Source: Ignavibacteria bacterium | GTDB lineage: Bacteria; Bacteroidota; Ignavibacteria; Kapaibacteriales; UBA4661 | Direction: 5' to 3' | Assembly (NCBI GenBank): GCA_013298775.1 | Contig: JAAFIV010000023.1 | Span: 1-64,000 of the forward strand | Length of the DNA: 64,000 bases | Notes under the pieces: model-generated | What the model was told of the DNA's origin: nothing | The model's database searches: none | Seen by the model: the letters and a program-made list of their open reading frames with translations, nothing else | Shown: positions 16,745 through 57,211 of the stretch, piece after piece | How positions within the stretch are numbered: the first letter of the stretch is position 1 | How the letters are laid out: each line of letters starts with the position of its first letter | Made by a program: the position numbers and the translations under genes

Positions 16745-16798
16745 ATAATTGACATTATACAGATTAGGCTCTGAAAGGCTAGAAATAGTATAAATACT

Positions 16799-16890
16799 GG
16801 CTTCAGTGGCTTGAGACTTCCTGTCTGTGTTTGTTGCCTGAATCCCGCACCAATACTCATAGACAAGAATGTCTGTGCCACTACTGAAGA
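16799..16890. repeat. P1 family repeat, copy A (core only)
   Basis: This is the core of the P1 element with the arm GTGGCTTGAGACTTCCTGTC on the left and AGACAAGAATGTCTGTGCCA on the right, joined by the GCACCAATACTCA spacer. The outer 18-bp ends seen in other copies are not recognisable. The gap 16745-17087 holds this repeat and no gene I can support. An apparent minus-strand reading frame here is only the repeat. Confidence 0.8.
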
Positions 16891-17087
16891 ACGAAAATCA
16901 CTCATCCATATAATGTCTAATACGGAATGCTTGTAACGTTGAACAGATAATCGCACAAATAATTCTTCAACCATTGATGAATACTCACTATTTCGTGAAA
17001 AAAGTTTGTATTTTGTAACGATTCATTTACCACGTTTTCTTCATTGTTTCCAATCATTTTCCACCACTATTGCGGGGAACCGTTGCC

Positions 17088-18898: not shown

Positions 18899-19049
18899 CT
18901 TTGTACACGACAAAACCCCTGAGAAGTTCGTAAAATCAGGCTTCAGTGGCACAGGCATTCTTGCCTGTGTTTGTCGCTTGAACCTCGCACCAACACTCAC
19001 AGACAAGAATGTCTGTGCTACTGTGAAAAAAAAATTGTCGTGTAAAGAG
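18899..19049. mobile_element. P1 family miniature element, copy B
   Basis: The left end CTTTGTACACGACAAAAC (18899-18916) has a decayed inverted partner around 19034-19049 (TTGTCGTGTAAAGAG). Flanking 9-mers CGTCTGAAC (18890-18898) and CTTCTGAAC (19050-19058) agree at 8 of 9 positions, as expected for an old target duplication. The length is 151 bp, the same as copy F. Confidence 0.75.
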
Positions 19050-22315: not shown

Positions 22316-22425
22316 AATCAGGCTTCAGTGGCACAGACATTCTTGTCTGTGGTTGTCGTCTGAAACCCGCGCCAATACCCACAGACAAGCTGAAGGAAGC
22401 CCTCAGGTCTGTGCTACCATTGGTT
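22316..22425. repeat. P1 family repeat, copy C (core, with inner insertion)
   Basis: The core reads CTTCAGTGGCACAGACATTC at the left and GTCTGTGCTACCA at the right. The right arm ACAGACAAG...GTCTGTG is interrupted by about 16 extra bases (near 22390-22406). It lies between iorA-like and iorB-like genes. Confidence 0.75.
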
Positions 22426-26349: not shown

Positions 26350-29025
26350 CTACAACGTAACACCCACCGTCACATACACACTTCGCGCCTCCGCAGGAAT
26401 AATGCCAGGTCCAGGATAACCTTCGGCGCGGCGCGTAAAATATCGTGCATCAAACAAATTATTCACTCCCGCCTCAATCGTCCATTTGATGCCGTCTCCA
26501 AGGTATTTATAGCTTGCAGAAATATCCGAAACCGCATAACTCGGAATAATGCCGTTCACCGCCGTTGAAGTGCGAATGGCGTTGGTCGCATCGGTGAAAT
26601 GGCGGTGGACGTAGGAATACTGCGCTGTTGCTTGAAACATTCCTGAAAGCGTGTATTCACGCCATGTTATGCCTGTGCGCAGCATCATCGGCGGCACGAG
26701 TTCCACTTCTTTGTTCAAAATAGAAAGGTCGTCGGTGTTGATGTAGCGAGCATCGGTGAAGGAAGAATTGACGAAGACCGATACGCTGCGAGAGCCGCCA
26801 TTACTTGCGTTTGAGCCAATTCCTTCAATCTCTCGCGCAAAAAACCATTTCCACACATCCACCTCAACCAAAGATTCTATGCCGAGTGTACGCGAATCTG
26901 CTATGTTCGTACGATAGCGATACGGCAAGTACAAGGGCGGCGCGTCTGCCTTCAACAGAAGCCCAATACGCTTGTCATAGTTCATTGCAAATGCCGACAC
27001 ATCCCAGTACAACACGCCATCCACGCGCCCGCGCACTCCCACATCAGCATTGAAGCCGCGTTCATCCTGCAAGTTTGGATTGACGGCAAAATTTGGATTC
27101 ACAATGCGCACATCCGAGAATTCAATCGCACGATAGTTTTGCGAAAAATTTCCATAGATTTCGAGCGCGACCGGCATCGTACCACGAGCGTCCGTGATAG
27201 ATTCCATGCGGGGTTTGTAGCTCACCCCCACGCCCGCCAGCAAAAACGAGCGTTCACGGTTAATCGTTTCATTCGTGCGCGTCTCGGCAACCATATTTCC
27301 TGCAAAATCGAACACGCGATTTTTGAAATAGCCATCGCCATAGGTGCCAATAAATTCCCAACGAACACCAGGCGTGATGCTAAGTTCAGGCGTTATCGCA
27401 AAAATATGTTCGGCAAACGCGGCAACGTTGCTGCTTGGGAAAATGTAGTCGGAATTTTCAAGATTACTCGGATTGCGATACTGAAAGCGCGGAAGCGAGG
27501 AATTATCGCCCTCGCCTTGCTGCTTTTCCGTCCAGCCCTTGAAAAGCCGCACACCCGCAAGTGCTGTCGAAGGTTTGTCATGCCCAAAGAGCGGAAGCGT
27601 GTAGTGATGCACGATGCGGGTCTCATTGCCAAGATTTTGGTTCATATCGCGTATCATGGTGCGATTTTGCCCAAAGTCAATGACGTTGATGCGCTCGAAA
27701 ATCCCCAGCGCGTCGCGTCCCGTGAAGGTCGCCCACGAGCGGCTTTCCAAGCGGGTTTCATCGGAAATGCGATAGTCCAACGTCAGCGAAAGCAAGTTCC
27801 ATTTTACTTGAAACCAATTCCGCTCGCGCGTGGATTGGAGCGGGTTTTGCTCGAACATAACATCGGTCAAGCCGCCCGGCTGCTGGGCTTGATATTGCAT
27901 GAAGGTATAATCGCTCGTCAAAGTGAGATTCCGTGCGGGTTTCCACTGGAGCGAGGCAAATGCTTGATGCTGCCAGAAGCCGGAATTTGGTCGCCAGCCG
28001 TCGCCGCGCTTGAATTGGTAGAGAGCAGTGTAATTGAGCGTTGGGGTGAATTGGTTCAAAGCAAGATTTGATGCGTCATTTGAGGTGTCTTTATTCAATA
28101 AAATCGTTCCGCCAACCGACGTAAACGAATTCAGAAAGCCAAACGAACCACCCGTGAGGCGGCTTGAAACCTCGATTGACTTATTGGCTGCGCCACGTTT
28201 GAACATAAAATTAAGCATTCCGCCAAACTGCGTTCCGTATTGCAAACTCGCTGCACCCCTCACCACTTCTATCCGCTCCAATGCTTCTACTGGTGGTGTG
28301 TAATAGCTTTCGGGATAACCAAGCGGGTCGGCGGCGATGTCGTAGCCATTTTGCCGCGTGTTGAAGTTCGCCGTGCGATTCGGACTCAGCCCGCGTGCGC
28401 CAATGTTCAGTTGCAAGCCCGAACCATCATTTTCCCAAATGTTCAAGCCTGCAACCTTCGCAAATACTTGCCGCGCGTTGTTGGCGGCTTTATTTGCCGT
28501 GATGTCGTCCAAGCGAATCACTTCCGTTTTTTTTGCTTCGTAAATTGCCGCACCTTCCACCGAGCGCAGCGCACCAATTCCCATGCCGTTGTCGTTTCTA
28601 TCCCGCACCATTACTTGTTTTGTGGTGAAGGCGCGTTCTTTCAAACGGAGCGTCAAAAGTTGTTCCGTTGGGATTGTGAGGTTCATTCTTAGGGTATCGT
28701 ACAACGCTGCCGACACCATGCAACGGTAGATTCCATGCGGTACAGAGGGAATTGCGAATGTACCGTCTGCTTGGGAAATCGCACCAAAGACCGCATTATT
28801 ACTGCCGTTCAGGATAATTCTTGCACCCGCAATAGCTTTCCCATTTGCAACCGAACCACGTACAGTTGAGGTTTCTTGCGCCTTTGCAGGAATACTCCAC
28901 AAAATCATCAATAGTGGCACAGACATTCTTATCTGTGTTTTGTATTTGAAGCACGCACCAATACTCACAGACAAGAAGTCTCGAGCCAATGAAAGGAGAA
29001 GACTATGTAAATGTAAAAATTGCAT
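26350..29025 (-). CDS. FecA-like TonB-dependent siderophore/citrate receptor
   Basis: The outer-membrane iron-complex receptor has a carboxypeptidase-like regulatory domain at about 55-125, a plug at about 150-290 (RQVFAKVAGLNIWENDGSGLQLNIGARGLSPNR; ALERIEVVRGAASLQYGTQFGGMLNFMFKRG) and a barrel ending GVTL. The ATG at 29025 follows the HTTM stop codon directly (TAAATG), which suggests translational coupling. A P1 repeat is inserted in frame within the signal-peptide region. Joining MQFLHLHSLLLSLA to LLMILWSIPAKAQ across it restores a normal leader. After insertion, translation may instead start at the ATG at 28926, within the repeat (MSVPLLMILWSIPAKA). It is the last gene of the iron operon. 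Confidence 0.88.
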   Translation of the reverse strand: MQFLHLHSLLLSLARDFLSVSIGACFKYKTQIRMSVPLLMILWSIPAKAQETSTVRGSVANGKAIAGARIILNGSNNAVFGAISQADGTFAIPSVPHGIYRCMVSAALYDTLRMNLTIPTEQLLTLRLKERAFTTKQVMVRDRNDNGMGIGALRSVEGAAIYEAKKTEVIRLDDITANKAANNARQVFAKVAGLNIWENDGSGLQLNIGARGLSPNRTANFNTRQNGYDIAADPLGYPESYYTPPVEALERIEVVRGAASLQYGTQFGGMLNFMFKRGAANKSIEVSSRLTGGSFGFLNSFTSVGGTILLNKDTSNDASNLALNQFTPTLNYTALYQFKRGDGWRPNSGFWQHQAFASLQWKPARNLTLTSDYTFMQYQAQQPGGLTDVMFEQNPLQSTRERNWFQVKWNLLSLTLDYRISDETRLESRSWATFTGRDALGIFERINVIDFGQNRTMIRDMNQNLGNETRIVHHYTLPLFGHDKPSTALAGVRLFKGWTEKQQGEGDNSSLPRFQYRNPSNLENSDYIFPSSNVAAFAEHIFAITPELSITPGVRWEFIGTYGDGYFKNRVFDFAGNMVAETRTNETINRERSFLLAGVGVSYKPRMESITDARGTMPVALEIYGNFSQNYRAIEFSDVRIVNPNFAVNPNLQDERGFNADVGVRGRVDGVLYWDVSAFAMNYDKRIGLLLKADAPPLYLPYRYRTNIADSRTLGIESLVEVDVWKWFFAREIEGIGSNASNGGSRSVSVFVNSSFTDARYINTDDLSILNKEVELVPPMMLRTGITWREYTLSGMFQATAQYSYVHRHFTDATNAIRTSTAVNGIIPSYAVSDISASYKYLGDGIKWTIEAGVNNLFDARYFTRRAEGYPGPGIIPAEARSVYVTVGVTL
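28912..28989. repeat. P1 family repeat, copy D, inside the receptor's signal-peptide region
   Basis: The core arm AGTGGCACAGACATTCTTAT at the left and GACAAGAAGTCTCGAGCCAA at the right match the other P1 copies. On the minus strand the repeat contributes about 23-26 in-frame codons and the candidate start codon ATG TCT GTG CCA CTA (28926-28912). Confidence 0.85.
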
Positions 29026-33693: not shown

Positions 33694-33806
33694 GCAATTT
33701 TGAATTCATGAAGGAGATTTGAATTCATGAAGGAGAACTTCCACGATGCTACGTCATTTTTTCAGGAATGTTGTAAAATGTCATTCTGTGCGGTACAGAT
33801 AGGTAG

Positions 33807-33911
33807 AGTGTACATCTGATATAGTGTACTTCTGATATAGTGTACTTCTGATATAGTGTACTTCTGATATAGTGTACTTCTGATATAGTGTACTTCTGAT
33901 ATAGTGTACAC
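33807..33911. repeat. Tandem 16-bp repeat, six full copies
   Basis: The unit AGTGTACTTCTGATAT is repeated head to tail from 33807 to 33902, with one variant base in the first copy, then part of a seventh. It contains GTAC- and ATAT-type palindromic cores. It lies between the iron operon's boxes and the 3' end of the next gene. Otherwise the gap 33571-33944 holds no gene. Confidence 0.92.
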
Positions 33912-33944
33912 TGCGTTTCAGAGGGAGGTATAGAGTACAACCCC

Positions 33945-36863: not shown

Positions 36864-37007
36864 GTAACGAGTGAGGTATTCTCCCGTCGGGCGGCTGTTA
36901 TCACAAGTACAGTAGCCGTCTGGCGGGTACGGCGCAAGAAGTAAACCCGCCGGACGGCAGCATTCCTGCACTCTTCAGCCGCCCGACGGGAAGACCTAAG
37001 CAGTTAC
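36864..37007. mobile_element. P2 family miniature element, copy 1 (IS66-like ends)
   Basis: The ends GTAACGAGTGAGGTA and GACCTAAGCAGTTAC are imperfect inverted repeats beginning GTAA. Flanking 8-mers GAAAATTA (36856-36863) and GAACATTA (37008-37015) agree at 7 of 8. The right flank includes the TAA stop of the downstream-reading cyclase gene. Each arm is itself a hairpin of CCCGYCGGRCGGCT type. Confidence 0.8.
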
Positions 37008-39074: not shown

Positions 39075-39227
39075 CCATGTACACGACCAAACCTTTCTGA
39101 GAAGCTGGTAAAATCAGGCTTCGGTGGCTTGAGACTTCTTGTCTGTATTCATCGCCTGAATCCCTCACCAATACTTGCAGACAAGAATGTCTGTGCCACG
39201 ATGAAGAAAGTTTTGTCCTGTACAGAG
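39075..39227. mobile_element. P1 family miniature element, copy E
   Basis: The left end CCATGTACACGACCAAAC and right end GTTTTGTCCTGTACAGAG are degenerate inverted copies of the 18-bp P1 terminus, with the usual core arms between them (GTGGCTTGAGACTTCTTGTC; AGACAAGAATGTCTGTGCCA). Flanking sequences CAATTGTGC and GAATTCTGC agree at 7 of 9, a possible decayed duplication. Confidence 0.78.
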
Positions 39228-41212: not shown

Positions 41213-41379
41213 GTAACTGGTCAGGTATTCCCCCCGTCGGGCGGCTGTTATCACAGATACAGTAGCCGTCCGGCGGGTGTACACGGGACGCTTTTATTGA
41301 GTACGCGCCCAAGAACCCGCCGGACGGCTACTGCGCTTGTGATAACAGCCGCCCGACGAGATAGTACCTGACCAGTTAC
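41213..41379. mobile_element. P2 family miniature element, copy 2 (best preserved)
   Basis: The 15-bp ends GTAACTGGTCAGGTA (41213-41227) and TACCTGACCAGTTAC (41365-41379) are exact complements. An 8-bp duplication GATATTTT flanks it (41205-41212 and 41380-41387). GTAA ends and 8-bp duplications are IS66-family traits. The 167-bp body holds GC-rich hairpins and no gene. The gap 41164-41511 contains this element and the terminator-like hairpin after it. Confidence 0.9.
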
Positions 41380-49437: not shown

Positions 49438-49606
49438 GCAAGAGACCTTTGTACACGACAAAACTTCTTCAGCAGTGGCACAGACATTCTTGTCTGTGGG
49501 TGTTGGTGCGGGATTCAGGGGAGAAACACAGACAGGAAGTCTCAAGCCACTAAAGCCTGATTCTACGAGCTTTTCAGAGGTTTTGTCGTGTACAAAGGCA
49601 AGAGAC
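49438..49606. mobile_element. P1 family miniature element, copy F, with perfect ends and target duplication
   Basis: The ends CTTTGTACACGACAAAAC (49447-49464) and GTTTTGTCGTGTACAAAG (49580-49597) are exact complements. GCAAGAGAC occurs directly on each side (49438-49446 and 49598-49606), a perfect 9-bp target duplication. The 151-bp body holds two hairpin arms of CACAGACATTCTTGTCTGTG type and no gene. The region 49330-49804 holds this element and the terminator after it and no other feature. Confidence 0.93.
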
Positions 49607-49665: not shown

Positions 49666-49717
49666 AAAAAAAAACGGGGTCTCACACTCAGCAAAATGGC
49701 TGAAGGTGAGACCCCGT
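49666..49717 (-). terminator. Rho-independent terminator of the TonB-C gene
   Basis: A 12-bp perfect stem ACGGGGTCTCAC (49674-49685) with GTGAGACCCCGT (49706-49717), extended by TCAGC/GCTGA. On the minus strand it is followed by a T-run (49674-49666). Confidence 0.9.
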
Positions 49718-57069: not shown

Positions 57070-57211
57070 GTAATCATTGAGGTATTCCCGCCCAAGCGGC
57101 TGTTATTACTAGCGCAGTAGCCGTCCGGCGGGTGGTGTGCAGACCGATTCACCCGCCGGACGGCAGCGTGTCTCCACTCCTCAGCCGCCCGACGGGAGAA
57201 ACCGACAAACA
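57070..57211. mobile_element. P2 family miniature element, copy 3 (degenerate)
   Basis: The left end GTAATCATTGAGGTATTCCC is related to the other copies. The GC-rich arms AGCCGTCCGGCGGGT and ACCCGCCGGACGGC are well kept, but the right terminus is eroded. No target duplication is visible. The region 57052-57366 holds only this element. Confidence 0.7.

What the first reader, a model, noticed from the sequence alone, without database searches (positions are those of the whole stretch)
49438..49606. P1 element: miniature transposon with 18-bp ends and perfect 9-bp target duplication
This copy has exact inverted ends (CTTTGTACACGACAAAAC) and GCAAGAGAC on both sides. Copies at 18899-19049 and 39075-39227 keep decayed ends and partial duplications, and cores occur at 16799, 22316 and 28912. 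Equal lengths of about 151 bp and perfect ends at one copy suggest recent movement by a transposase supplied in trans. The 9-bp duplication narrows the possible IS families, for instance IS4/IS10-like, but does not settle it.
Basis: seen in the sequence. Interest (0 to 1): 0.65.

Follow-up and report, generated by a model that had tools for sequence, protein, structure and literature searches.

The report
IS4-type mini-transposon carrying REP-like core
It is a 151-bp non-coding hitchhiker transposon, present in dozens of recent and decayed copies in this bacterium, whose ends match those of a single full-length IS4-family transposon in the same genome; its middle is a separate REP-like palindrome that also sits inside other, unrelated mini-transposons.

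Summary
Observation confirmed. Window 49447-49597 is a 151-bp element with perfect 18-bp inverted ends and a perfect 9-bp duplication (GCAAGAGAC). Genome-wide, 124 end sequences (≤2 mismatches; control 3) and about 40 scored, nearly full-length copies were found. Of 56 full-length hits collected (a few double-counted), 36 after removing double counts carry an 8-9/9 target duplication, with 34 distinct 9-mers.

Uninterrupted paralogous sites carry the 9-mer once, and the element is absent from four of five orthologous neighbourhoods in a congener. So this is a MITE, inferred to be moved in trans by an IS4-family transposase.

One correction: the "cores" are not all copies of this element. The core is a REP-dimer-like palindrome (575 arm hits) shared by at least one other well-supported end scaffold and two weaker ones. 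The core at 16799 lies in a different mini-element; 22316 joins two scaffolds. The genome belongs to the genus of a Kapaibacterium MAG. The MITE itself is ordinary; the shared core cassette is the unusual part.

The parts
49447..49597 (+). Intact MITE copy, 151 bp, non-coding; folds end to end as RNA (-67.5 kcal/mol, z -7.8)
49447..49464 (+). Left terminal inverted repeat, 18 bp, CTTTGTACACGACAAAAC
   Evidence: matches the parent IS ends
49580..49597 (-). Right terminal inverted repeat, exact
49438..49446 (.). Left copy of the 9-bp target duplication GCAAGAGAC
49598..49606 (.). Right copy of the 9-bp target duplication GCAAGAGAC
49474..49551 (+). 78-bp REP-dimer-like core, AGTGGCACAGAC...GCCACT, found genome-wide also outside this MITE
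18899..19049 (-). Older copy of the same MITE: exact left end, decayed right end, 8/9 duplication
39078..39227 (-). Decayed copy of the same MITE: ends with 2-3 mismatches, no duplication left
16749..16919 (.). Different mini-element (ends of TAGACATTATACAGATTA type, 171 bp) carrying the same core at 16805-16882; not a copy of the 49447 element
22327..22417 (+). Core copy with this MITE's flank on the left and the GATTTCAGTTGGAAA-type scaffold's flank on the right (chimeric junction)
28913..28988 (+). Core copy in a decayed context with no recognisable ends

Best explanation
The element is a MITE: a non-autonomous derivative of an IS4-family insertion sequence (9-bp duplication and CT ends, as in the IS10 subgroup). 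The transposase of the single intact IS in the genome, or of a close relative now lost, binds the shared 18-bp ends, cuts the element out, and pastes it into targets resembling GTTNNNAAC, making 9-bp duplications; palindromic REP arms are preferred targets. The interior is a REP-dimer-like palindrome that did not come from the IS and is carried along. Shown: shared ends, duplications, empty sites, an intact transposase gene with the family's catalytic motifs, copies of graded age. Inferred: that this transposase mobilises the element in trans, cut-and-paste chemistry, and that the core is a passenger.
For: Parent IS L031:1602-2780 (G000:C14:80601-81779): right end 18/18 and left end 16/18 identical to the MITE ends, GGTACAGAC on both sides. 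351-aa ORF, NF033591 IS4 family E=6e-60 above the curated cutoff, PF01609, YREK motif Y249-R252-E256-K263. Full-length MITE copies: 36 with 8-9/9 duplication, 34 distinct 9-mers, where random 9-mer pairs reach 8 or more in about 0.0003 of cases. Copies nearest the consensus keep their duplications best: 16 of 17 at 90% identity or more versus 5 of 13 at 80-85%. Empty sites: the IS target in L092/L096/L100 (91-95% identical across the junction) and the MITE L012 target at C1:130022-130133 each hold the 9-mer once. In congener G005 the element is missing at the loci orthologous to L003, L006, L016 and L021. Insertions into REP arms: 5 of 36 against 0.5% coverage, p about 1e-6.
Against: Only one intact IS copy stands against dozens of MITEs, and its left end differs from the MITE end at two bases. 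Clear homology between IS and MITE stops about 18 bp in. No transposition was observed. The orthologous G005 intergenic regions are diverged, so the exact single 9-mer is seen only at paralogous, not orthologous, empty sites. The 49447 copy itself has no testable empty site.
Confidence: 0.93

Rival explanations
1. The copies are a REP/REPIN-type repeat spread by a Y1 (RAYT) transposase; the outer 18-bp ends are only part of a long palindrome.
For: The core looks like a REP dimer (GTGG tag plus hairpin, two in inverted order) and is several times more numerous than the ends. Two Y1_Tnp genes are in the genome.
Against: RAYT-type movement is not expected to make 9-bp duplications (established knowledge of IS200/IS605-type elements), yet these are regular. 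The ends match an IS4-family IS. Both RAYT genes are flanked by other palindromes (GTGAGGGTCTCA, GTGCGGGAGCCTCGCT), not by this core.
Confidence: 0.04
2. The core is a cassette that moves between or is exchanged among unrelated mini-transposon scaffolds, by REP-type insertion into palindromes or by recombination between copies, so that several transposases amplify it. This complements the best explanation rather than replacing it.
For: The same 78-bp core occurs in this scaffold, in a TAGACATTATACAGATTA scaffold (6 pairs), and in two weaker ones (2 pairs each). Chimeric copies exist, such as 22327-22417. In congener G007 the listed matches cover only or mainly the core, and core-only matches occur in another family of the order. 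REP dimers within palindromes are on record in other bacteria (PMC3733652).
Against: Scaffolds other than this one and the TAGACATTATACAGATTA one rest on few copies. Sequence next to the core (CTTCA / GAAGCC) is partly shared between scaffolds, so they may descend from one element with diverged ends.
Confidence: 0.35
3. The element is a selected regulatory hairpin or terminator kept in place rather than an actively moving repeat.
For: Strong RNA fold, z -7.8; the 49447 copy lies between convergent genes (OmpA/VWA-type and TonB_C-type).
Against: Fresh duplications, low divergence among young copies and absence from orthologous sites show mobility. Long inverted repeats fold strongly by construction.
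Confidence: 0.03

Closest known systems
IS4 family, IS10 subgroup (PMC2266710)
   Same: 9-bp duplication, ends beginning CT, DDE transposase with YREK motif, no frameshift, about 1.2 kb (table)
   Different: IS is 1179 bp, just under the listed 1200-1350 range; no subgroup tree was built; the transposase has no sequence match to any PDB chain at E up to 1
MITEAba12 / ISAba12 (PMC6382973)
   Same: MITE attributed to a co-resident IS on the basis of shared ends and 9-bp duplications
   Different: Different host phylum; IS4 is not mentioned in that paper; no REP-like core noted in the passages read
REPINs (PMC3116915) and GTAG-tagged REP dimers (PMC3733652)
   Same: Two inverted REP-like hairpins with GTGG/GTAG tags, hundreds of copies; some REP dimers sit inside longer palindromes
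   Different: Here the enclosing palindrome is a transposable element with identified ends and a co-resident IS with the same ends; no cognate RAYT found
IS elements that target REPs (PMC1525189)
   Same: IS and MITE insert repeatedly into REP-like palindromes
   Different: Preference is partial (5 of 36), and the MITE carries a REP-like core itself

Membership tests
MITE (non-autonomous IS derivative) | Short, non-coding, terminal inverted repeats | tested here: met
   151 bp, 18-bp exact ends
MITE (non-autonomous IS derivative) | Target duplications of constant length at many sites | tested here: met
   36 copies with 8-9/9 duplications, 34 distinct 9-mers (list)
MITE (non-autonomous IS derivative) | Autonomous element with the same ends in the genome | tested here: met
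   L031:1602-2780, intact transposase ORF
MITE (non-autonomous IS derivative) | Mobilised in trans by that transposase | not testable with these tools
   needs a transposition assay
IS4 family (parent IS) | DDE transposase with YREK motif, no frameshift | tested here: met
IS4 family (parent IS) | Duplication near 10 bp; 9 bp for the IS10 subgroup | tested here: met
   GGTACAGAC on both sides; range
IS4 family, IS10 subgroup | Transposase clusters with IS10 members | not tested
   no tree built against named IS4 subgroups
REPIN (core only) | Two inverted REPs with tag and hairpin, high copy number | tested here: met
REPIN (core only) | Cognate RAYT flanked by the same REP | tested here: not met
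   both Y1_Tnp genes are flanked by other palindromes; the assembly has 95 contigs, so a missed gene is possible

The most novel reading that the evidence does not exclude
A REP-dimer-like cassette parasitises several unrelated mini-transposon families: it enters or recombines into their palindromes, is amplified by their different transposases, and its arms in turn serve as landing sites for the same transposons, giving a two-tier selfish system.
Probability: 0.25. Interest if true: 0.6.

Novelty: new variant of a known kind. Interest (0 to 1): 0.4.

Why it matters
It ties a very abundant repeat of a Kapaibacterium-related lineage to a named transposase family and gives a testable donor. The shared core suggests how REP-like repeats could multiply without a RAYT of their own, by riding inside DDE-transposon MITEs, and why such palindromes pile up in intergenic space.

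Tried and rejected
No Rfam family matches. RAYT as the mover of the 151-bp element: rejected on the 9-bp duplications and the non-matching REPs around both RAYT genes. Empty-site test at the 49447 locus in G005: the upstream gene is conserved but what follows it is not, so no verdict. L010 locus in G005: a different core-bearing sequence sits there, so it is neither empty nor clearly shared. A full-length parent for the TAGACATTATACAGATTA scaffold was not apparent from the positions of its near-exact ends; the regions fetched for it were not analysed further. The homologous IS copies elsewhere look defective: an in-frame stop in the copy of genome G001 and, by reading, a small insertion that shifts the frame in L070.

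Full report
What is there. The 151 bp at 49447-49597 have exact 18-bp inverted ends and GCAAGAGAC on both sides. The same element occurs throughout the 5.19-Mb, 95-contig genome: the search listed 49 matches, 40 of them long copies, from 100% down to 74% identity (only 40 candidates were scored), and 124 end sequences with up to two mismatches against 3 for the reversed control pattern. The genome is in the same genus as G001, whose IS copy corresponds in position and identity to a record titled Candidatus Kapaibacterium sp.; that is the basis for the taxonomic placement.

Duplications. In the 30 loci first fetched, most copies have 8 or 9 matching bases of 9 on the two sides, nearly all with their own 9-mer; random 9-mer pairs reach this about 3 times in 10,000. 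Over 56 full-length hits (a few counted twice from overlapping loci), 36 pass after double counts were removed, with 34 distinct 9-mers. Retention falls with distance from the consensus, as expected of a family with younger and older members: 16 of 17 at 90% identity or more, 13 of 17 at 85-90%, 5 of 13 at 80-85% (these bands are before removal of double counts). The pooled 9-mers show a weak symmetric preference, G-T-T-N-N-N-A-A-C.

The parent. Among end sequences not spaced as in the MITE, one pair encloses 1179 bp. It holds a 351-aa ORF that matches NCBIfam IS4-family transposase NF033591 above its cutoff and Pfam DDE_Tnp_1, with a complete YREK motif. The IS is flanked by GGTACAGAC on both sides. 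It is the only full copy found; one fragment at 75% identity remains on C45. Related transposases at 86-88% identity occur in a Kapaibacterium MAG and an Ignavibacteria MAG; the latter shows the same ends. By the table in PMC2266710, CT ends and a 9-bp duplication point to the IS10 subgroup; this was not tested by a tree.

Empty sites. The IS sits in a core of the GATTTCAGTTGGAAA-type element; uninterrupted relatives of that element (L092, L096, L100) run straight through with one copy of the 9-mer (one base different). MITE copy L012 sits in a GTAG-type palindrome; uninterrupted copies at C1:130022-130133, 150777-150888 and 252847-252956 hold AGCGCAGAC once. In congener G005 the loci orthologous to L003, L006, L016 and L021 lack the MITE, though the intergenic DNA there is diverged.

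The core. The middle 78 bp, AGTGGCACAGACATTCTTGTCTGTG and its inverted partner, is a REP-dimer-like unit with 575 arm hits in the genome against none for the reversed control. In 1.2 Mb, 114 core-family hits were found, 57 with flanks of this MITE by the criteria used; several of the remainder also look, by eye, like decayed copies of it. The same core lies inside a different element type, often 171 bp, with TAGACATTATACAGATTA ends (6 end pairs with core, including window 16749-16919) and in two rarer scaffolds with 2 pairs each. Some copies join two scaffolds, e.g. 22327-22417. In G007 and in G084 of another family, the listed matches to the MITE cover only or mainly the core. The two Y1/RAYT genes in this genome are bounded by other palindromes, so a RAYT for this core was not found. 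PMC3733652 records REP dimers placed within longer palindromes in other bacteria, so the arrangement has precedents; here the enclosing element is tied to an IS with the same ends.

Target choice. Five of 36 insertions with good duplications fall in REP arms that cover 0.5% of the sampled genome (p about 1e-6), and the IS itself is in one. REP targeting by IS elements is known (PMC1525189).

Verdict. A MITE family of an IS4-family element, new as a member, with an unusual REP-like interior shared across scaffolds. Mobilisation in trans, and the route by which the core came to lie in several scaffolds, remain inferences.

Noticed in passing
33788-33915: Tandem array of a 16-bp unit (TATAGTGTACTTCTGA), several units.
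   Followed up: no
36883-36991, 41233-41361, 57088-57197: Another family of GC-rich palindromic repeats (CCCGTCGGGCGGCTG type), several copies in the window.
   Followed up: no
L009, L012, L014, L015, L029 flanks: A second REP-like palindrome family tagged GTAG (GTAGCGCAGACACTCTTGTCTGCG), related to the core and hit by several MITE insertions.
   Followed up: partly
L003:1371-1460: A further repeat of about 90 bp (GTTTATCTCGAATAAGGTTTTTAGAG...), 96-98% identical in dozens of places in congener G005.
   Followed up: no
L031:1602-1618: The stop codon of the parent transposase gene is formed by the last bases of the IS end, so its last codons lie inside the inverted repeat.
   Followed up: partly
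49675-49715: Terminator-like hairpin (ACGGGGTCTCAC...GTGAGACCCCGT) just downstream of the 49447 element, between the two convergent genes; read by eye.
   Followed up: no
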